Source: Spirosoma telluris (GTDB lineage: Bacteria > Bacteroidota > Bacteroidia > Cytophagales > Spirosomataceae). Taken from it: a stretch of 64,000 nt of DNA. The stretch spans positions 7,183,001 to 7,247,000 of the forward strand of contig QLII01000001.1 in NCBI GenBank assembly GCA_003259005.1. Reading direction: 5' to 3'. Positions 3,166 to 7,901 of this stretch are shown here, piece by piece (position 1 is the first letter of the stretch; each line of letters opens with the position of its first letter). The notes beneath the pieces were generated by a model. It worked only from the letters and a program-made list of their open reading frames with translations. It was not told the DNA's origin and searched no databases. The translations under genes and the position numbers were made by a program.

Positions 3166-3343
3166 GGTAGTAGAAAGGTAGCCGGGCTAACTGCTAAATT
3201 TGCAAGCAGTTAGCCCAGCTCTTTTCAGAAAGCTCTTTTTTCGGTTTTTCAGATAGGGTGGTATCAATTTCCATTTGATAGGTAAGCTAACTATCTAAAA
3301 ATAAAAAATCCTCCTGATTCCCAAACCAGAAGGATGTTGAAAG

Positions 3344-3414
3344 TCAACCCGCCGAGACTCGAACCCGGATCTTCCGAACCACAATCGGATGCTCTACCTT
3401 TGAGCTACGGGAGG
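3344..3414 (-). tRNA. tRNA-His(GTG), atypical acceptor stem
   Basis: Anticodon arm CCGA-TTGTGGT-TCGG gives anticodon GTG. The D-arm (GCTC/GAGC) and T-arm with TTCGAGT loop are good. The acceptor strands (plus 3345-3351 and 3408-3414) pair with two central mismatches, and the usual extra 5' G of tRNA-His is not evident. It is the last tRNA of the array in the direction of transcription. Confidence 0.7.
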
Positions 3415-3416
3415 GG

Positions 3417-3488
3417 TTGACGAGGAGAGAATCGAACTCCCATGACCTGAACCAAAATCAGGTATAATAACCGTTATATCACTCGTCA
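3417..3488 (-). tRNA. tRNA-Gln(TTG)
   Basis: Perfect 7-bp acceptor (TGACGAG/CTCGTCA), anticodon loop TTTTGGT giving TTG, T-loop TTCGATT, discriminator A. Only 2 nt separate it from the tRNA-His gene. Confidence 0.9.
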
Positions 3489-3493
3489 ATTTG

Positions 3494-3565
3494 TAGCCCT
3501 GGAGAGATTCGAACTCCCATAGCCGGTTCCGAAGACCGACGTCCTATCCGTTGAACGACAGGGCC
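3494..3565 (-). tRNA. tRNA-Arg(TCG)
   Basis: Acceptor GGCCCTG/CAGGGCT (one G-T), D-stem GTTC/GGAC, anticodon loop CTTCGGA giving TCG, T-arm GGGAG-TTCGAAT-CTCTC. Confidence 0.88.
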
Positions 3566-3572
3566 ATTATTG

Positions 3573-3660
3573 TCTCGGTAGAGGGACTCGAACCCCCATA
3601 GCCATTCAATGTACCAACGATGCTTAAAACCGTCGCGTCTACCAATTTCACCATACCGAG
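3573..3660 (-). tRNA. tRNA-Leu(TAA)
   Basis: Perfect acceptor CTCGGTA/TACCGAG, anticodon stem ACGGT/ATCGT around TTTAAGC giving TAA, a long class II variable arm, and T-loop TTCGAGT. Confidence 0.88.
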
Positions 3661-3664
3661 ATAG

Positions 3665-3738
3665 TACTCCGAGCGGGACTCGAACCCGCAGAACTCCTGA
3701 TCCTAAATCAGGCGACTTTGCCTTTTGCCCACCGGAGC
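3665..3738 (-). tRNA. tRNA-Leu(TAG) lacking the long variable arm
   Basis: Acceptor GCTCCGG/TCGGAGT with G-T ends, anticodon arm CCTGA-TTTAGGA-TCAGG giving TAG, T-arm GCGGG-TTCGAGT-CCCGC. The D-arm has leucine-like spacing, but the variable loop is only about 6 nt, whereas bacterial tRNA-Leu normally has a long arm. It may be a reduced leucine tRNA or an altered isotype. Confidence 0.75.
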
Positions 3739-3747
3739 TTATAATAA

Positions 3748-3833
3748 AAAGACACTCTGGATTGTCCAGAACAGCCGGGAACCTCACCCGGAAAGCTGAC
3801 AGGTTGATCAGTCCTGATTACATCAGTGCCTCT
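3748..3833 (-). ncRNA. Cloverleaf-like RNA at a tRNA position, not a recognisable tRNA
   Basis: On the minus strand a 9-bp terminal stem (plus 3748-3756 with 3825-3833) encloses several small hairpins: CTGAT-GTA-ATCAG, CTGA/TCAG, CCGGG-TGAGGTT-CCCGG and CTGG-ACAAT-CCAG. It has the size of a class II tRNA and the same spacing to its neighbours, but no TTCGA-type T-loop and no anticodon loop with T33. It could be a degenerate tRNA or another structured RNA. Confidence 0.4.
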
Positions 3834-3836
3834 TAG

Positions 3837-3908
3837 TAGGGTGAGCCGGATTTGAACCGACGACCTCACGCGCCCAAAGCGTGTAATCTACCGCTGATAT
3901 ACCACCCT
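3837..3908 (-). tRNA. tRNA-Pro(TGG)
   Basis: Acceptor AGGGTGG/TCACCCT, anticodon arm CACGC-TTTGGGC-GCGTG giving TGG, T-loop TTCAAAT, discriminator A. Confidence 0.88.
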
Positions 3909-3958
3909 AAATAAAATGTACTTACATTTGTATTGAAATTAATAAAATTAGTGACTTT

Positions 3959-4069
3959 ATGGCTTGTAAGAATACCCGTCCACGGATTTTAAAGCGTCGG
4001 AAACGTCTCCAAAAAGTTTTGTCTAAATTGACTCCCAGTACCAGTATCGAAGCTCCGAGTCAGGCGTAA
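3959..4069 (+). CDS. Small very basic hypothetical protein (36 aa)
   Basis: Opposite strand to the tRNA genes, in the 690-nt gap between tRNA-Pro and tRNA-Ser. ATG to TAA encodes 36 residues, with an Arg/Lys-rich centre (RPRILKRRKRLQK) and a Ser/Thr-rich tail, compatible with nucleic-acid binding. No family is recognised and no ribosome-binding site is evident. The hairpin at 4077-4103 follows at once. A chance ORF cannot be excluded. Confidence 0.3.
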   Translation: MACKNTRPRILKRRKRLQKVLSKLTPSTSIEAPSQA

Positions 4070-4076
4070 AACAAAA

Positions 4077-4103
4077 AGCCCTGACTCTTAGGGAGCCAGG
4101 GCT
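4077..4103 (-). terminator. Rho-independent terminator inside the tRNA array (minus-strand direction)
   Basis: Inverted repeat AGCCCTG-A-CTC (4077-4087) and GAG-C-CAGGGCT (4093-4103) around a 5-nt loop. On the minus strand the stem is followed by a T-rich tract (plus-strand A run 4067-4077). It would end transcripts coming from the upstream array and the gene at 4291-4521. Confidence 0.65.
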
Positions 4104-4112
4104 GGATACTGA

Positions 4113-4238
4113 ATGTCGTTGAACTTACCGGACATTACTCTCCCGACCTGGCTGGAAGCCTGGCAGATGCTGGGGGAGTTGTTGACGACGATTGTTCATG
4201 GTGCAATATTAGGAGGATTTTTCGATCCTGTCAAGTAA
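4113..4238 (+). CDS. Small hydrophobic hypothetical protein (41 aa)
   Basis: ATG to TAA, 41 residues, with an amphipathic first half (LPTWLEAWQMLGELL) and a hydrophobic second half (TTIVHGAILGGFF), so a single membrane segment is plausible. It lies next to the 36-aa ORF on the same strand, opposite to the tRNAs. No family recognised; small membrane peptides are common in phage-derived islands, but that is inference. Confidence 0.33.
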   Translation: MSLNLPDITLPTWLEAWQMLGELLTTIVHGAILGGFFDPVK

Positions 4239-4290
4239 ACCAAGAAAATTATTTTATTGGAGGCAGGGGAAGATCACCACCTACCTCTTA

Positions 4291-4521
4291 CTATATGTCG
4301 TGACCGTTTGGTGCCTCCTTCATTAACGTCAGGTGGTCGATGAGTATCCACCGTTCCTTGCCGTCCGTCAAGACACATTGTGCCTTGTTCGCTACCGTAT
4401 CAACTTCCTTTCCCGTCATTCGAAGGCCGCCGTTGATGTCATTGTGTGTTACATATGAGCCGTCGCCTAATCCAATTAAATTTGTCATTCGTTTAATGTA
4501 CCGTATACCAGATCCTGGCAT
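4291..4521 (-). CDS. Hypothetical protein (76 aa) within the tRNA array
   Basis: Cotranscribed direction with the tRNAs. A start at 4488 (MTNLIGLGDG) is an alternative to 4521. The protein is soluble and mixed alpha/beta by appearance, with a GLGDGSYVTHNDI stretch and a WILIDHL segment; no family is recognised. The terminator at 4077-4103 lies downstream. Protein genes embedded in tRNA arrays are typical of phage or integrative-element tRNA clusters, so a mobile-element origin is inferred. Confidence 0.5.
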   Translation of the reverse strand: MPGSGIRYIKRMTNLIGLGDGSYVTHNDINGGLRMTGKEVDTVANKAQCVLTDGKERWILIDHLTLMKEAPNGHDI

Positions 4522-4594
4522 AACAAATATACGAATCGCTCACTACGAAAACAAATGGATTTCAGGTCATTTTCAACTGATTAGTCTTCAATTG

Positions 4595-4678
4595 CAGAGA
4601 GGCCCGGGCTCGAACCGGGACAGGTGTTACCCCGACAGATTAGCAGTCTGTTACCTTAACCAATTCAGTCACCTCTCT
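4595..4678 (-). tRNA. tRNA-Ser(GCT)
   Basis: Perfect acceptor AGAGAGG/CCTCTCT, anticodon arm CAGA-CTGCTAA-TCTG giving GCT, long variable arm, T-arm CCCGG-TTCGAGC-CCGGG, discriminator G. Confidence 0.93.
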
Positions 4679-4682
4679 ATGG

Positions 4683-4765
4683 CGGAAGATGTAGGAATCG
4701 AACCCCTAAAGCTTTTACACCCAGCTGTTTTCAAGACAGTGTCCTCGTCCATTCGGGCGACCTCC
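4683..4765 (-). tRNA. tRNA-Ser(TGA), degenerate stems
   Basis: Anticodon arm CTGT-CTTGAAA-ACAG gives TGA, and there is a long variable arm and TTCGATT loop. The T-stem has two non-pairs and the acceptor (GGAGGTC/ATCTTCC) pairs only in its outer five positions. Functionality is uncertain. Confidence 0.68.
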
Positions 4766-4777
4766 AGTAAATAATTG

Positions 4778-4848
4778 CACAAAGGGAAGGATTCGAACCT
4801 CCGTTGATGGTTTTGGAGACCATAGTCCTACCGCTGGACGACCGATGT
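4778..4848 (-). tRNA. tRNA-Trp(CCA), two acceptor mismatches
   Basis: Anticodon arm ATGGT-CTCCAAA-ACCAT gives CCA; D-arm GTCC/GGAC and T-arm GGAGG/CCTTC are sound. The acceptor ACATCGG/CCTTTGT has two central pyrimidine mismatches, as in the tRNA-His of this array. Confidence 0.78.
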
Positions 4849-4856
4849 GTGAAGGC

Positions 4857-5189
4857 TTAACAGGGCCTTACTCCCTGTGCCTCATAGGCAGTATCACGCC
4901 GGGAGATTTCTCCGAATGGCGATTCGCCAACGCCCAGATGGCTAATGTTCCTGAATCCATTCTCGGGAGTAATAATCGACTCAGTCAACATTACGGAGCC
5001 CGTATTCTTACCATCTCCTTTCTTATGCTCGATATTCCCGGTGCTCGGATTATAGGAACCCCAGTCACCGCCCCGACCATTCCCGATTGGCTCCACAAAG
5101 TACCCTACACCTGTTACTGAAGAAGTAACAGCGAAACGTCCAGTCTCATCGGTGTCTTGAAAGAAGCGGGTAATAAGGTCAGGTTTCAT
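4857..5189 (-). CDS. Hypothetical protein (110 aa) within the tRNA array
   Basis: Begins MKPDLITRFFQDTDETGRF and is Gly/Asn/Ser rich (GNGRGGDWGSYN, STGNIEHKKGDGKN), which suggests a beta-rich soluble or structural protein; it has no membrane segment or signal peptide. It lies between tRNA-Thr and tRNA-Trp and reads in the same direction, so it is likely cotranscribed. No family is recognised. A small phage protein is a reasonable guess from context only. Confidence 0.5.
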   Translation of the reverse strand: MKPDLITRFFQDTDETGRFAVTSSVTGVGYFVEPIGNGRGGDWGSYNPSTGNIEHKKGDGKNTGSVMLTESIITPENGFRNISHLGVGESPFGEISRRDTAYEAQGVRPC

Positions 5190-5217
5190 AATTGTAAAGT
5201 TTAAAGGTACCGAATTG

Positions 5218-5290
5218 AGCTGCCTACCGGTCTCGAACCGATCGCCAATGGGTTACAAATCCACCGTTCTACCAACTGAACTAAAGCAGC
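5218..5290 (-). tRNA. tRNA-Thr(TGT)
   Basis: Acceptor GCTGCTT/AGGCAGC, D-arm GTTC/GAAC, anticodon loop TTTGTAA giving TGT, T-arm ATCGG-TTCGAGA-CCGGT, discriminator T. Confidence 0.9.
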
Positions 5291-5350
5291 ATGACTCGGA
5301 GAGCCGGGCCAACTGAGGCCCTCCGAATAAGTCACGTTGGCTATGACTGG

Positions 5351-5386
5351 TGGTACGAGTAGGGATCGAACCTACGGTTGCCGTTG
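5351..5386 (-). pseudogene. 3' half of a tRNA with encoded CCA
   Basis: T-arm GTAGG-TTCGATC-CCTAC, 3' acceptor strand TCGTACC, discriminator A and a genomic CCA (next to plus 5348-5351). Directly 5' of it on the minus strand is the complete tRNA-Phe, so the D-arm and anticodon arm are missing here. Its acceptor strand can pair (6 of 7, one G-T) with the orphan 5' half at 5999-6022, beyond the HNH gene. Confidence 0.6.
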
Positions 5387-5459
5387 TGGAGCCAGCAGGT
5401 TTCGAACCTGCCTCTTCTGCTCTTCAGGCAGACGCTTTCACCAGATTAGCTTCAGCTCC
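5387..5459 (-). tRNA. tRNA-Phe(GAA)
   Basis: Acceptor GGAGCTG/TGGCTCC, anticodon arm TCTGC-CTGAAGA-GCAGA giving GAA, T-arm GCAGG-TTCGAAA-CCTGC, discriminator A. Its first 36 nt overlap the 3' end of the HNH endonuclease gene, whose stop codon (TGA, 5424-5426) lies in the anticodon loop region. Confidence 0.9.
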
Positions 5460-5966
5460 ATATTTACTTTTTCGGTTGATGAGATTGTTTATAGTACTCT
5501 TTGACAGGATACCATATTTCTCCATTATCTCTTTATAGGTCATTCCTGACTGTTTATCAGTAATAATCGCCAGCTCTTGTTCGGTCCCAGCAAATACCTT
5601 TTTAGTCCGACCATATGTAGCCAATTCTACTAGAAGCTCTTCGGTATAGCGATCCGAATGAATTTCACAGTGGCAGTTAGCACAGACTAGATCACATTTC
5701 TGTAGCTCAGCCTCCACAACACTCCAAGCCTTATTACAGAACCGCCCAATCTCAAACTCCTTCTGGGACGGATCCCTGTGGTGAAAATGAAAAGCAGCGG
5801 GATGTCCTGCGAATCCGCATTTCGTACACTTACCACCCAGTAATTCAATAGACTTTAATTTAGCCCTAGCTCTCCGAAGCCTCGTATTGCAGCCATTGCA
5901 TCGTAACCGATTACGTCCCTGCAGCTGGTTGATTTCCCGGGCACATACTCTACAGGTATTTTTCAT
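5424..5966 (-). CDS. HNH endonuclease, homing-type, inside the tRNA array
   Basis: About 180 aa; ATG at 5966 preferred (an in-frame TTG lies at 5972). N-terminal zinc-binding motif CRVC...CNGC (residues ~6-30), a second C-x2-C (CTKC, ~50), then the HNH core HFHHRDP (~63-69) and CDLVCANCHCEIHSDR (~93-108). The C-terminal ~60 residues hold a helix-turn-helix-like segment (MTYKEIMEKYGILSKSTINNL) as in homing HNH enzymes. The expected role is site-specific DNA cleavage that drives spread of the gene or its host element (family knowledge). The gene runs 36 nt into tRNA-Phe and lies between two orphan tRNA halves, suggesting that it inserted in or targets a tRNA sequence (inference). Confidence 0.85.
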   Translation of the reverse strand: MKNTCRVCAREINQLQGRNRLRCNGCNTRLRRARAKLKSIELLGGKCTKCGFAGHPAAFHFHHRDPSQKEFEIGRFCNKAWSVVEAELQKCDLVCANCHCEIHSDRYTEELLVELATYGRTKKVFAGTEQELAIITDKQSGMTYKEIMEKYGILSKSTINNLINRKSKYGAEANLVKASA

Positions 5967-5998
5967 ATCCAAATATACTCACTTGGTAGTTCATTAAA

Positions 5999-6022
5999 AT
6001 CCTACCGCTGAGTTACAGTACC
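5999..6022 (-). pseudogene. 5' half of a tRNA (acceptor strand and D-arm)
   Basis: Minus strand reads GGTACTG-TA-ACTC-AGCGGTA-GGAT: a 5' acceptor strand, the TA spacer and a D-arm. No anticodon arm follows; the HNH gene begins 33 nt later. It is placed one spacer (6 nt) upstream of tRNA-Cys in the array register. It probably belongs with the 3' half at 5351-5386. Confidence 0.5.
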
Positions 6023-6028
6023 ATATTG

Positions 6029-6099
6029 AGGTTCCTACTGGATTTGAACCAGTGATCCCGCTTTTGCAGAGCCCGACCTTACCGCTTGGCTAAGGAACC
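6029..6099 (-). tRNA. tRNA-Cys(GCA), weak anticodon stem
   Basis: Perfect acceptor GGTTCCT/AGGAACC, T-arm ACTGG-TTCAAAT-CCAGT and D-stem GCC/GGT. Anticodon loop CTGCAAA gives GCA, but the anticodon stem has only three pairs plus two G-G oppositions. Confidence 0.82.
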
Positions 6100-6141
6100 G
6101 TTATAAAACCTACTAATCTGTTTATGAATTAGTAGATATCG

Positions 6142-6216
6142 TGTGACCGGTGGGGTTCGAACCCACGACCCTTCCCTTAAAAGGGGAATGCTCTAAGCCA
6201 ACTGAGCTACGATCAC
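6142..6216 (-). tRNA. tRNA-Lys(TTT)
   Basis: Acceptor GTGATCG/CGGTCAC, anticodon arm TTCCC-CTTTTAA-GGGAA giving TTT, T-arm GTGGG-TTCGAAC-CCCAC, discriminator A. Confidence 0.95.
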
Positions 6217-6221
6217 ATGTG

Positions 6222-6294
6222 TACGTCCGGATGGGTTTGAACCACCGGCCCTCACCGTATAAGGGTGCTGCTCTAACCCCTGAGCTACGGACGT
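6222..6294 (-). tRNA. tRNA-Ile(TAT)
   Basis: Perfect acceptor ACGTCCG/CGGACGT, D-arm GCTC/GAGC, anticodon loop CTTATAC giving TAT, T-loop TTCAAAC. Most bacteria read AUA with a lysidine-modified CAT tRNA; a genomic TAT isoleucine tRNA is typical of phages and mobile tRNA clusters (family knowledge). Confidence 0.92.
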
Positions 6295-6299
6295 ATAAG

Positions 6300-6373
6300 T
6301 AGTCATATCTGGATTCGAACCAGAGACCTTCTCCGTATCAGGGAGACGCTCTAACCAACTGAGCTATATGACT
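6300..6373 (-). tRNA. tRNA-Ile(GAT)
   Basis: Perfect acceptor AGTCATA/TATGACT, anticodon arm TCTCC-CTGATAC-GGAGA giving GAT, T-arm TCTGG-TTCGAAT-CCAGA, discriminator A. Confidence 0.95.
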
Positions 6374-6379
6374 ATAGAG

Positions 6380-6461
6380 TTGAAGCGGAGGGACTCGAAC
6401 CCCCAGAGCTTTCACACCTGATCTACAGTCAGGCCCGCTACCAGTTACGGTTTACGCTTCA
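6380..6461 (-). tRNA. tRNA-Tyr(GTA)
   Basis: Perfect acceptor TGAAGCG/CGCTTCA, anticodon arm CCTGA-CTGTAGA-TCAGG giving GTA, class II variable arm, T-loop TTCGAGT, discriminator A. Confidence 0.9.
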
Positions 6462-6470
6462 GTTTACTAG

Positions 6471-6561
6471 CAGGGGTAGAGGGATTCGAACCCGCGACGC
6501 TGCATCCGGTACGGTGTATACCCCCTATCCGGATTCTGTTTACCGGCCACAGACATACCCT
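6471..6561 (-). tRNA. Irregular tRNA with a 19-nt anticodon-arm loop
   Basis: 3' part is tRNA-like: T-loop TTCGAAT and acceptor strand TACCCCT with discriminator G. The 5' strand reads AGGGTA, which pairs if one G lost from a homopolymer is restored; a D-arm TCTG/CAGA follows. In place of a normal anticodon arm there is a 6-bp stem ATCCGG/CCGGAT closing a 19-nt loop (ATAGG...CCGTA). No isotype can be assigned. Degenerate, or interrupted in the anticodon loop. Confidence 0.5.
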
Positions 6562-6564
6562 TTG

Positions 6565-6640
6565 CAGTCCATATCGGATTCGAACCGATGATCTCCCCAG
6601 AGACAGTGGGGCAGGGACGGCCAGGCTCCCCTAATGGACC
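6565..6640 (-). tRNA. tRNA-Asp(GTC)
   Basis: Acceptor GGTCCAT/ATGGACT (one G-T), anticodon arm CCCCA-CTGTCTC-TGGGG giving GTC, T-arm ATCGG-TTCGAAT-CCGAT, discriminator G. Confidence 0.88.
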
Positions 6641-6652
6641 ATTTTCTTATTG

Positions 6653-6724
6653 AGGGGGATACTGGATTCGAACCAGTGGCCATTCGATTAACAGTCGAAA
6701 GCTCTACCGCTGAGCTAAACCCCC
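6653..6724 (-). tRNA. tRNA-Asn(GTT)
   Basis: Acceptor GGGGGTT/ATCCCCC with one T-T, anticodon arm TTCGA-CTGTTAA-TCGAA giving GTT, T-arm ACTGG-TTCGAAT-CCAGT. Confidence 0.93.
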
Positions 6725-6735
6725 GAAAAGAAAAA

Positions 6736-6763
6736 TCCCCTGCCGACTTGCGTTGACAGGGGA
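6736..6763 (-). terminator. Terminator hairpin between tRNA-Glu and the rest of the array
   Basis: TCCCCTG (6736-6742) pairs with CAGGGGA (6757-6763); on the minus strand it is followed by TTTTTCTTTTC. It shares CCCCTGCCGA with the hairpin at 7360-7384. It would separate the tRNA-Glu transcript from the downstream array, implying a promoter of its own for the main array unless it is leaky. Confidence 0.6.
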
Positions 6764-6897
6764 AGAAAACCTAAGTAAGTATCTATATAACTAGTGTACT
6801 GTTCGGTCAATATTTCCCCCATCTGCCAATCTATATAGCAGCTAAAGCACTTGGAAATAGTTGATGGATTCAGTAACATGATTTCTTAATCGTTTTG

Positions 6898-6986
6898 TAT
6901 CCGATACGGGACTTGAACGGCAGCGGCCGACCGTCCGTCTCTTCAAATTGAAAGTTTGAGATCCTAACCAACTAGACGAATCGGAC
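6898..6986 (-). tRNA. tRNA-Glu(TTC) with an enlarged variable/T region
   Basis: Acceptor GTCCGAT/ATCGGAT (one G-T), anticodon arm TCAAA-CTTTCAA-TTTGA giving TTC. Between the anticodon arm and the TTCAAGT loop there are about 12-14 extra GC-rich bases, so the gene is 89 nt rather than about 76. It is the first tRNA of the array in transcription order. Confidence 0.72.
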
Positions 6987-7554
6987 AGATTATTGCTCTG
7001 CCTCTCGCTCGACTAATATAGTTGTGATTGTTTTCATTTTAATTACCTAGTCAAAAAGTTTCGCCCTTTTGATGATGCAATGTTAAAAGCAGTCAGCGGA
7101 TTTTCCAAAATATTTGTCAATTAATTTTCTAATTATTTTGGGAATATATTAACTATTAGTTAGCAAACTATATAGTTCTCCCAGCCCAAATAATTCGTAG
7201 ATTTTTGGCAAAATAATTTCAAATAATTAACAAAATCAGTAATCAACTTTTCGACGTTTAGTCAATAGTTTTTACCAGCACCGATTCATTATTTACCCAC
7301 AAGATACGTATGTTCCTGAGCTAGTAGATCCGTCAGAAACAGCCTACTAGCTAACAAAAAACCCCTGCCGATCTGGAAGGGGTTAGTTTATTGAGTAAAG
7401 TCTTTATTACTTAGTCAATGGGAACCGACCCCTGCTTTTGGCAGATAAAGTCTATCGATTCATATTTACTGTAATTGTTCATGGCCCAAAGATAACGGAA
7501 TGAATTTGTCATTTCCAAATATGGAACTACTATTTCGTAAATTTAATTACCGAT
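6987..7554. other. AT-rich spacer flanking the tRNA array
   Basis: About 570 bp, distinctly richer in A/T than its neighbours, with no convincing gene. It should contain the promoter for the minus-strand array; no clear TAnnTTTG element is in register. A terminator-like hairpin lies at 7360-7384. Confidence 0.5.
7360..7384 (-). terminator. Terminator-like hairpin upstream of the array
   Basis: AACCCCT (7360-7366) pairs with AGGGGTT (7378-7384), followed on the minus strand by TTTTTTG. It has the same CCCCTGCCGA core as the hairpin at 6736-6763 and is oriented to stop minus-strand transcription before the array. Confidence 0.55.
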
Positions 7555-7901
7555 GTGCTTAAAAGCATGGCCATTAAAAAGTGCGCTTACTCTGGGTTAA
7601 TGTTACCCGTTATTGAAGATAAAGTGTTGGCTAAACGAGCCCTGGAAAAACGGTTTACCGTGCAGGAAATTCTGTTATTTTCTTCGGTCTCAGGCACAGG
7701 ATTGGATGTTGTACTGATACCCGGCAATACACCAAAGCAGGTTATCGAAAATACGCTCGTTGATGTTGCAGCCTTATCACTTAAATACACGGCCAAAGCA
7801 CTTTCGGTAAGGCTATTTTTAATACCGGAAAACAAGCAGGTAACACGGTTACTTTTGAAAACCCAAATTTAACCTCCTCGGTAGTCATGAAGACATACTG
7901 A
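7555..7901 (+). pseudogene. DUF711 (UPF0210-like) protein, C-terminal fragment
   Basis: The translation (VQEILLFSSVSGTGLDVV..., IPGNTP, LVDVAALSLKYTAKALSVRLFLIPG) resembles the C-terminal ~115 residues of DUF711 proteins, which are normally ~430-450 aa. The first ~300 residues are missing; the AT-rich spacer of the tRNA island stands in their place. A one-base loss in GG at 7827-7828 shifts the frame; restoring it gives K-Q-A-G-N-T-V-T-F-E-N-P-N and a natural end VVMKTY at 7901. A deletion or insertion event at the island edge is inferred. Confidence 0.6.

What the first reader, a model, noticed from the sequence alone, without database searches (positions are those of the whole stretch)
3344..6986. 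A ~3.6-kb minus-strand tRNA array in a Bacteroidota genome, with about 20 tRNAs and embedded protein genes
Well-formed tRNAs for His, Gln, Arg, Leu (2), Pro, Ser (2), Trp, Thr, Phe, Cys, Lys, Ile (2), Tyr, Asp, Asn and Glu lie head to tail on one strand, mostly a few nt apart; Ala, Gly, Val and Met are not seen. Normal chromosomal tRNA genes are not organised this way. The set includes a tRNA-Ile(TAT), typical of phages and mobile elements, and the array carries an HNH gene, unknown small genes and its own terminators. Such arrays occur in phages and integrative elements and are proposed to rescue translation when host tRNAs are cleaved by anticodon nucleases (established idea). Whether this one is functional is not known.
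Basis: partly seen in the sequence, partly recalled or inferred. Interest (0 to 1): 0.85.

Follow-up and report, generated by a model that had tools for sequence, protein, structure and literature searches.

The report
tRNA array with codon-matched leader switches
A spare set of tRNA genes in a Spirosoma bacterium is preceded by tiny genes whose codons spell out the very tRNAs that follow, which looks like a switch that turns the spare set on when those tRNAs run out, and the same design appears in phages.

Summary
The array is real: ARAGORN minus-strand tRNAs at 3343-6987 (Rfam agrees), in a Spirosoma genome. It looks accessory: 16 of 18 have a same-anticodon copy elsewhere; Ile(GAT) and Ile(TAT) were not found again. 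Seven right-flank proteins showed no phage or integrase gene; mobility is untested otherwise.

Three sub-blocks are headed by a short ORF, then an intrinsic terminator. The ORF codons name the downstream tRNAs: MNN-RRQQLPQHLP-... precedes Pro, Leu, Leu, Arg, Gln, His. The layout recurs in other Bacteroidia genomes and in viral contigs. Picked by one rule, 32 chromosomal leaders match their own arrays far better than swapped ones (0 of 20,000 permutations); so do 39 non-redundant leaders of a second viral set (0 of 20,000). Named phages (Cellulophaga phi38:1, Maribacter Panino) carry it; T4 and crAss001 showed none. Most clusters examined have no leader by this rule.

Best reading: ribosome-mediated attenuation (trp/his logic). 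Loss of a listed tRNA stalls the leader ribosome, the terminator fails, replacements are made. Antiterminator pairing supports this in many leaders; equilibrium folding does not. Nothing was tested at the bench. My searches found no paper describing it.

The parts
7487..7494 (-). -7 box TATCTTTG (Bacteroidota TAnnTTTG consensus, recalled) 4 nt before the leader A1 start codon
   Evidence: sequence; a perfect TAnnTTTG stands 2-8 nt before ATG in 11 of the 32 picked leaders
7411..7482 (-). Leader peptide A1 MNNYSKYESIDFICQKQGSVPID; residues match the Glu-Asn-Asp-Tyr-Ile-Ile-Lys-Cys-Phe... tRNAs
   Evidence: homologue in Spirosoma sp. 48-14 (L075)
7360..7384 (-). Intrinsic terminator of A1 (AACCCCTTCC-AGATC-GGCAGGGGTT + TTTTGTT)
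   Evidence: in L075 the 5' arm is identical, the 3' arm differs by one base, the loop differs
6897..6987 (-). tRNA-Glu(ttc)
6715..6879 (-). Leader A2 MLLNPSTISKCFSCYIDWQ...; homologous to MLLNIKNISKKFICYIDWQTGGYLDHSVS of L075, but one nt shorter after the control codons, so that the frame runs on through the terminator to a stop inside tRNA-Asn
6736..6763 (-). Intrinsic terminator of A2 (TCCCCTGTC ... GGCAGGGGA + T run)
6141..6724 (-). tRNA block Asn(gtt) 6652-6724, Asp(gtc) 6564-6640, Tyr(gta) 6379-6461, Ile(gat) 6299-6373, Ile(tat) 6221-6294, Lys(ttt) 6141-6216
   Evidence: 6173-6461 (Tyr, Ile, Ile, part of Lys) is 84% identical to G022/L075
6028..6099 (-). tRNA-Cys(gca)
5424..5972 (-). HNH endonuclease with a C-terminal HTH-like part, inside the array
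   Evidence: HTH matches are below Pfam's cut-off
4594..5459 (-). tRNA block Phe(gaa) 5386-5459, Thr(tgt) 5217-5290, Trp(cca) 4777-4848, Ser(gct) 4594-4678; orphan ORF 4857-5189 lies inside; a sub-threshold Ser-like tRNA at about 4683-4766
4204..4211 (-). -7 box-like TAATATTG, 4 nt before the leader A3 start codon (one mismatch to TAnnTTTG)
   Evidence: sequence
4125..4199 (-). Leader peptide A3 MNNRRQQLPQHLPGFQPGRESNVR; matches Pro-Leu-Leu-Arg-Gln-His
   Evidence: best 10-residue window 10 of 10 matched, reached by 0 of 20,000 random peptides
4077..4103 (-). Intrinsic terminator of A3 (AGCCCTGGCTC-CCTAA-GAGTCAGGGCT + TTTTGTTT)
3343..3908 (-). tRNA block under A3: Pro(tgg) 3836-3908, Leu(tag) 3664-3738, Leu(taa) 3572-3660, Arg(tcg) 3493-3565, Gln(ttg) 3414-3489, His(gtg) 3343-3414

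Best explanation
The array is a reserve tRNA set held off by ribosome-mediated transcription attenuators. A sub-block starts with a short leader ORF, often sitting directly on a promoter-like box, then a terminator, then the tRNAs. The leader's codons call for the very tRNAs encoded downstream. When charged tRNAs of that set are plentiful, the ribosome runs through the leader and covers its 3' part, the terminator forms, and the array stays off. When one of them is depleted, the ribosome stalls at its codon. The 3' part of the leader is then free to pair with the terminator's 5' arm, the terminator fails, and the tRNAs are transcribed. The likely trigger is tRNA cleavage by anticodon nucleases of phage-defence or toxin systems. 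In phages the same unit would be an inducible counter-defence; in chromosomes it is a captured or shared repair reserve. Shown (by sequence): leader, terminator and tRNA order; codon-to-tRNA match; recurrence in other genomes of the class and in phages; a complementary leader region in many of them. Inferred: translation of the leaders, direction of the response, trigger, and benefit.
For: (1) Chromosomal statistics: 32 rule-picked leaders; fraction of leader residues naming a downstream tRNA 0.407 against 0.279 with arrays swapped (0 of 20,000 as high); other two frames 0.197 and 0.227; 93% of array amino acids appear in the leader (75% when swapped); CMH odds ratio 6.0, p 4e-10. With similar leaders removed, 29 remain: 0.417 against 0.288, 0 of 20,000. 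(2) A viral set meant as a control gave the same: 15 leaders, 0.639 against 0.540, 0 of 10,000 (not cleared of similar leaders). A second viral set, cleared of leaders similar to the first set or to each other: 39 leaders, 0.494 against 0.431, 0 of 20,000; CMH odds ratio 3.3, p 3e-11. (3) Named phages: phi38:1 ...LLHQEPLEQLRLP... before Pro-Glu-Gln-His-Leu-Arg; Panino MKTQRLHQELEQP... before Pro-Glu-Gln-His-Leu-Leu-Arg. (4) Codon boxes: where the array serves one box only, leader Arg codons fall in it 29 to 9 and Leu 8 to 1 (Ser 16 to 12, weak). (5) A leader region starting at median codon 19 pairs with the terminator 5' arm: 19 of 32 beat at least 285 of 300 shuffles. Matched residues lie before it (294 of 600) more than from it on (69 of 263), p 3e-10. 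(6) 11 of 32 leaders have TAnnTTTG 2-8 nt before ATG. (7) Concerted change: no tRNA-Glu was called in the L075 array, and its A1 leader has Gly where the window has Glu. (8) In L228 an rtcB gene (RNA repair ligase) follows directly on the last tRNA.
Against: Equilibrium folding does not show the switch: only 8 of 34 leaders have any stall position at which the antiterminator wins, and matched codons are not enriched there (31 of 64 against 357 of 843, p 0.36). The model therefore needs co-transcriptional kinetics. Antiterminator pairing does not pass the 15-of-300 mark in 13 of 32 leaders; window A3's is no better than shuffles (94 of 300 as strong) and A1's is modest (17 of 300). Window A2 seems frame-shifted through its own terminator, so A2 may be broken. 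Counted over the whole peptide, some leaders are no better than random: Panino a 2623 of 20,000, G025 1832 of 20,000, though their best 10-residue windows are rare (1 and 32 of 20,000). By my rule most clusters have no leader: 43 of 73 chromosomal, 92 of 107 and 299 of 353 viral, and none in T4 or crAss001. Some picked ORFs plainly do not match (for example L112 MDSMTV... and one in phage Calle_1). No expression data were available. A tRNA-cleavage trigger cannot be told from amino-acid starvation by sequence.
Confidence: 0.8

Rival explanations
1. Plain phage or mobile-element cargo: a constitutively expressed array that makes up for codon bias or cleaved tRNAs. The short ORFs are incidental.
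For: HNH gene with relatives inside viral tRNA arrays in 3 of 11 loci; best same-anticodon identity of array tRNAs averages 0.667 to host tRNAs (16 pairs, 1-2 candidates each), 0.758 to other Bacteroidia arrays (473 tRNAs) and 0.773 to viral tRNAs (4884), so the larger sets are favoured by size; most clusters lack a leader by my rule.
Against: The codon match is far beyond chance in three sets, and the other two frames lack it in the chromosomal set. Terminators stand in front of the tRNAs, which makes little sense for constitutive supply.
Confidence: 0.1
2. The attenuator answers amino-acid starvation (low charging) rather than loss of tRNA molecules, as in biosynthetic operons.
For: The leader design is that of trp/his attenuators (recalled), which respond to charging; the sequence cannot separate the two inputs.
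Against: The regulated product is the tRNA itself, which would not help if the amino acid is missing. Most leaders name several different amino acids. In L228 the array adjoins the RNA-repair ligase rtcB.
Confidence: 0.25
3. The array is part of the housekeeping set: without it the cell cannot read some codons.
For: No other Ile(gat) was found; the one rRNA operon found has no tRNA in its spacer.
Against: 16 of 18 have same-anticodon copies elsewhere. The genome scan scored only 150 of 435 tRNA candidates and the assembly is 94.65% complete, so a missed Ile(gat) is possible. 30 of 36 genus genomes gave no array hit with the T-loop pattern.
Confidence: 0.08

Closest known systems
Ribosome-mediated transcription attenuators of trp, his, leu, ilv operons (recalled)
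   Same: Short leader ORF with control codons that name the operon's product; intrinsic terminator; in 19 of 32 leaders a leader 3' part complementary to the terminator 5' arm.
   Different: The regulated genes are tRNAs, not enzymes. One leader names several amino acids at once, so it would work as an OR gate. Several attenuators can follow one another in one array.
tRNA array units / tRNA gene clusters of mycobacteria, phages and plasmids (PMC5966550, PMC6409571, PMC12803027: passages from term look-ups)
   Same: Dense tRNA genes, often with HNH genes; suspected anti-defence role.
   Different: Those texts contain no occurrence of 'leader', 'attenuat', 'terminator' or 'promoter'; Cellulophaga phage clusters are named in PMC6409571 without leaders.
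Phage tRNAs that evade tRNA-cutting defences (PMC10264068, PMC11555353: listing with abstract start, and term look-ups)
   Same: Replacement tRNAs against tRNA-targeting defences.
   Different: No inducible control is described: 'leader' and 'attenuat' 0 occurrences.
T-box riboswitches
   Same: Sense tRNA state and control a terminator (recalled).
   Different: Sensing here is by a translated leader; the Rfam scan at gathering scores listed tRNA matches only in the window.

Membership tests
Ribosome-mediated transcription attenuator | Short leader ORF with control codons matching the regulated product | tested here: met
Ribosome-mediated transcription attenuator | Intrinsic terminator between leader and structural genes | tested here: met
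   window: (in the picked sets the terminator was a selection criterion)
Ribosome-mediated transcription attenuator | Mutually exclusive antiterminator using the leader 3' part | tested here: inconclusive
   duplex test positive in 19 of 32; equilibrium stall folding negative; window A3 not significant, A1 modest
Ribosome-mediated transcription attenuator | Expression rises when the control tRNA is depleted | not testable with these tools
   needs a reporter or RNA-seq
tRNA array unit | Unusually many tRNA genes at high density on one strand | tested here: met
   18 in 3.6 kb
tRNA array unit | Accessory to a separate full tRNA set | tested here: inconclusive
   16 of 18 duplicated; Ile(gat) and Ile(tat) not found elsewhere
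Prophage or integrative element | Integrase, att repeats or phage structural genes beside the array | tested here: inconclusive
   three in-array and seven right-flank proteins (4.3 to 13.3 kb) scanned, no integrase or phage structural gene; left flank and att repeats not tested
T-box riboswitch | T-box RNA structure upstream | tested here: not met
   Rfam: only tRNA matches over cut-off in the window

The most novel reading that the evidence does not exclude
Many phage tRNA arrays, and related arrays kept in Bacteroidia chromosomes, are not constitutive codon supplements but inducible counter-measures. A multi-codon leader peptide works as an OR-gate sensor of tRNA destruction and releases replacement tRNAs of the sensed set only when the host or a rival starts to cut tRNAs.
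Probability: 0.6. Interest if true: 0.95.

Novelty: new variant of a known kind. Interest (0 to 1): 0.9.

Why it matters
[quoted passage not shown] A leader that lists the tRNAs downstream says what the array senses, when it should be on, and which tRNAs are expected to be lost. That makes the rescue hypothesis directly testable and lets one read likely nuclease targets from sequence. It also extends textbook attenuation from amino-acid synthesis to the tRNAs themselves, with a many-input leader, and it is present in isolated phages with named hosts (Cellulophaga phi38:1, Maribacter Panino).

Tried and rejected
Host-duplicate origin: rejected; array tRNAs are 57-78% identical to host isoacceptors.

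Empty site: the right flank only was searched in the genus; matches to its genes are scattered over many places, and I did not follow them to an empty site. Left flank not searched.

Equilibrium stall folding: did not support the switch; reported as evidence against.

Grouping of tRNAs under one leader by anticodon nt 36 (codon first base): seen in chromosomal leaders (concordance 0.418 against 0.324, 4 of 5000 shuffles) but not in the viral set (1115 of 5000); not claimed.

PADLOC on 9 window proteins: none matched. One viral scan for relatives of ORF 4857-5189: none.

Literature. None of the rows listed was on leader-controlled tRNA arrays; three listings were cut (20 of 153, 10 of 18, 15 of 28). 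Two ISME J papers on Cellulophaga infection named in a reference list were not held.

Selection told: the 61 loci scanned for the chromosomal statistic were chosen by me from the listings, passing over housekeeping triplets and tandem repeats by eye. L077, L078, L123-L125 and L185 were fetched but left out. Of 35 candidates, 3 near-duplicates were dropped (32 used). Window A1, A2 and L075 A1 were not picked by the rule and are not in the 32. The second viral set (266 loci; 55 candidates, 51 after removing repeats, 50 usable; 0.536 against 0.469, 0 of 10,000) turned out to hold 40 loci (L317-L356) of the first scan and some leaders much like those of the first set; one search repeats it without them (44 leaders, then 39 after removing similar ones).
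Full report
WHAT IS THERE. ARAGORN finds 18 minus-strand tRNAs at 3343-6987 and no other in the 64 kb. Rfam agrees: 17 over the cut-off in the window; Asp is not listed there but scores 44.1 bits in the genome scan. The window lies at G000:C1:7183001-7247000 of a 9.09 Mb, four-contig assembly, 94.65% complete; C1 is 8.66 Mb long. The genus is Spirosoma: a same-genus genome (G022) has a contig of 746,668 bases, the length of NZ_MKUD01000001.1, Spirosoma sp. 48-14, and the leader A1 pattern hits that record. The class name Bacteroidia is recalled.

ACCESSORY SET. Elsewhere in the genome, 41 tRNAs were called. Of the 18 array tRNAs, 16 have a same-anticodon copy there, at 57-78% identity. Ile(gat) and Ile(tat) do not. 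Two further searches for Ile(gat) gave none, and the one rRNA operon found has a tRNA-free spacer. A looser pattern found an Ile(gat)-like loop outside an array in only 2 of 13 Spirosoma genomes, so the patterns or the assemblies may miss it; the scan scored 150 of 435 candidates. I leave this open.

THE LEADERS. Reading the minus strand shows short ORFs followed by G+C-rich hairpins with T runs in front of tRNA blocks. A3 (4125-4199) encodes MNNRRQQLPQHLPGFQPGRESNVR; its terminator is at 4077-4103; the tRNAs that follow are Pro, Leu, Leu, Arg, Gln, His. Its best ten-residue window is matched 10 of 10; none of 20,000 random peptides drawn from the pooled leaders did as well. A1 (7411-7482) encodes MNNYSKYESIDFICQKQGSVPID; the tRNAs downstream begin Glu, Asn, Asp, Tyr, Ile, Ile, Lys, Cys, Phe. 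A2 (from 6879) begins MLLNPSTISKCFSCYIDWQ. Both have homologues in Spirosoma sp. 48-14 (L075). There the A1 stretch is 90% identical, the terminator's 5' arm is unchanged and its 3' arm differs by one base, and the Glu codon is replaced by Gly; no tRNA-Glu was called in that array. A2 in the window is one base shorter after the control codons, and its frame runs on through the terminator, so A2 may be damaged.

RECURRENCE IN CHROMOSOMES. Searches of 36 genus, 222 family, 390 order and 296 class genomes (overlapping sets) for array DNA or three tightly spaced T-loops gave many arrays; I fetched those that looked like arrays. With one rule (terminator within 260 nt before a tRNA; ATG ORF of 12-45 codons ending 10-55 nt before it), 30 of 73 tRNA clusters in 61 loci had a leader candidate. 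After dropping 3 near-duplicates of 35, 32 leaders were tested. The fraction of leader residues that name a downstream tRNA is 0.407, against 0.279 (sd 0.017) when arrays are swapped; 0 of 20,000 permutations reach it. The other two frames give 0.197 and 0.227. The leaders cover 93% of the array's amino acids (75% when swapped). The Cochran-Mantel-Haenszel odds ratio over amino acids is 6.0, p 4e-10. With similar leaders removed, 29 remain and the result holds (0.417 against 0.288, 0 of 20,000). Wrong picks of the rule are included in these numbers. Examples: QRPQHQRQP before Pro, Arg, then Gln, His (L112); FFSFYCF before Cys, Phe, Tyr (L118); QYQPQPSSCQYW before Pro, Tyr, Cys, Trp, Gln (L119); LYSLSWLSYSL before Leu, Ser, Tyr (L178).

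RECURRENCE IN PHAGES. I ran the same rule on 91 IMG/VR loci expecting a negative control. It was positive: 15 leaders in 15 of 107 clusters, 0.639 against 0.540, 0 of 10,000. A further 266 loci gave candidates in 54 of 353 clusters; 50 leaders, 0.536 against 0.469, 0 of 10,000. On checking, 40 of those loci came from the first scan and a few leaders resembled the first set. Without them and without similar leaders, 39 remain: 0.494 against 0.431, z 4.2, 0 of 20,000; odds ratio 3.3, p 3e-11. Through one of these (L386) I reached named phages: Cellulophaga phage phi38:1 (NC_021796.1), Calle_1 (NC_062744.1) and Maribacter phage Panino (PP540027.1). phi38:1 has MKTIMNIATDIRTKGVKLL... before Lys, Ile, Gly, Met, Asp, Thr, Val, Arg; MKTNMTYNNFSWYSNCSFSS... 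before Ser, Ser, Asn, Phe; and ...MNVTLLHQEPLEQLRLP... before Pro, Glu, Gln, His, Leu, Arg (the listed ORF is longer; I take the inner start, as in Calle_1). Panino has MKTQRLHQELEQP... before Pro, Glu, Gln, His, Leu, Leu, Arg, and MRAATGIAIIGRTKDK... before Ala, Lys, Ile, Gly, Asp, Thr, Val, Met. One further Calle_1 candidate, before Leu, does not match. The tRNA regions of T4 and Bacteroides phage crAss001 showed no such unit.

MECHANISM. The geometry is that of trp/his attenuation (recalled): control codons first, then a leader stretch (starting at median codon 19) complementary to the terminator's 5' arm, then the stop, mostly 18-28 nt, and the terminator. In 19 of 32 leaders this pairing is matched by no more than 15 of 300 shuffles; in G025 it is -24.6 kcal/mol against a shuffle mean of -11.5. 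tRNA-naming residues lie before that stretch (294 of 600) rather than from it on (69 of 263), p 3e-10. Where only one codon box is served by the array, Arg codons of the leader lie in that box 29 to 9, Leu 8 to 1, Ser 16 to 12. Eleven of 32 leaders have a perfect TAnnTTTG box 2-8 nt before ATG, which suggests that the leader mRNA starts at or next to the start codon (inference). Against it: equilibrium folding with a stalled ribosome shows the antiterminator in only 8 of 34 leaders, with no enrichment of matched codons there (p 0.36); window A3 and A1 pair weakly (94 and 17 of 300 shuffles as strong). A kinetic switch would fit, but that is inference.

TRIGGER. That tRNA cleavage is the trigger is inferred. 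The output is tRNA, which helps when tRNAs are destroyed and not when an amino acid is missing. In L228, whose first block stands under the leader MILHFIQPQQLRPQSEEGDNYA, an rtcB gene (RNA-repair ligase) follows on the last tRNA; of 20 genes next to leader-bearing arrays that were scanned, it is the only one with an RNA-repair match. Phage tRNAs are reported to evade tRNA-cutting defences (PMC10264068, PMC11555353; listings and term look-ups).

NOVELTY. Ten literature searches (some listings cut) and term look-ups in seven papers found no mention of leader peptides or attenuators for tRNA arrays. The library holds open-licence papers only. Attenuation is a known kind; tRNA arrays as its target, with many-input leaders, look new.

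Noticed in passing
window 5335-6045 (minus): The HNH gene and tRNA-Phe seem to lie between the 5' half (about 6025-5985) and the 3' half (about 5385-5346, with encoded CCA) of another tRNA; some joined versions are called a tRNA by ARAGORN (17 hits, 12 of them Trp, anticodon not certain). It may be a tRNA split by insertion.
   Followed up: partly
L228:4681-6213 (+): An rtcB RNA-ligase reading frame begins at the last tRNA (Phe) of an array whose first block is leader-controlled, in line with a tRNA-damage response.
   Followed up: partly
L183 and L165: In L183 (G244) a tRNA that ARAGORN calls Pyl(cta), and in L165 (G259) an undetermined one, stand next to Gln(ctg) and Lys(ctt); they may be amber-reading tRNAs.
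   Followed up: no
G000:C1:6108500-6114500 (L079): The only rRNA operon found has a 16S-23S spacer of about 210 nt with no tRNA-Ile or tRNA-Ala.
   Followed up: partly
window 7555-7872: Fragment of a DUF711 protein (profile positions 310-399 of 413) right beside the array's upstream end; it may mark a rearrangement border.
   Followed up: no
window 4857-5189, 4291-4521 (minus) and 3959-4069 (plus): Orphan ORFs inside the array with no PHROG match at E 0.1 (the first two also had no Pfam match); the plus-strand one is short and Arg/Lys-rich.
   Followed up: partly
L076:7047-10448 (+): Next to the G025 array lies a 1133-aa PLD-helicase protein resembling several anti-phage defence proteins in PADLOC (best E 5e-44).
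   Followed up: no
window Phe, Tyr and Leu(taa) tRNAs: Nucleotide 37 is G in the array copies and A in the host copies; such anticodon-loop changes could alter modification or nuclease recognition.
   Followed up: no
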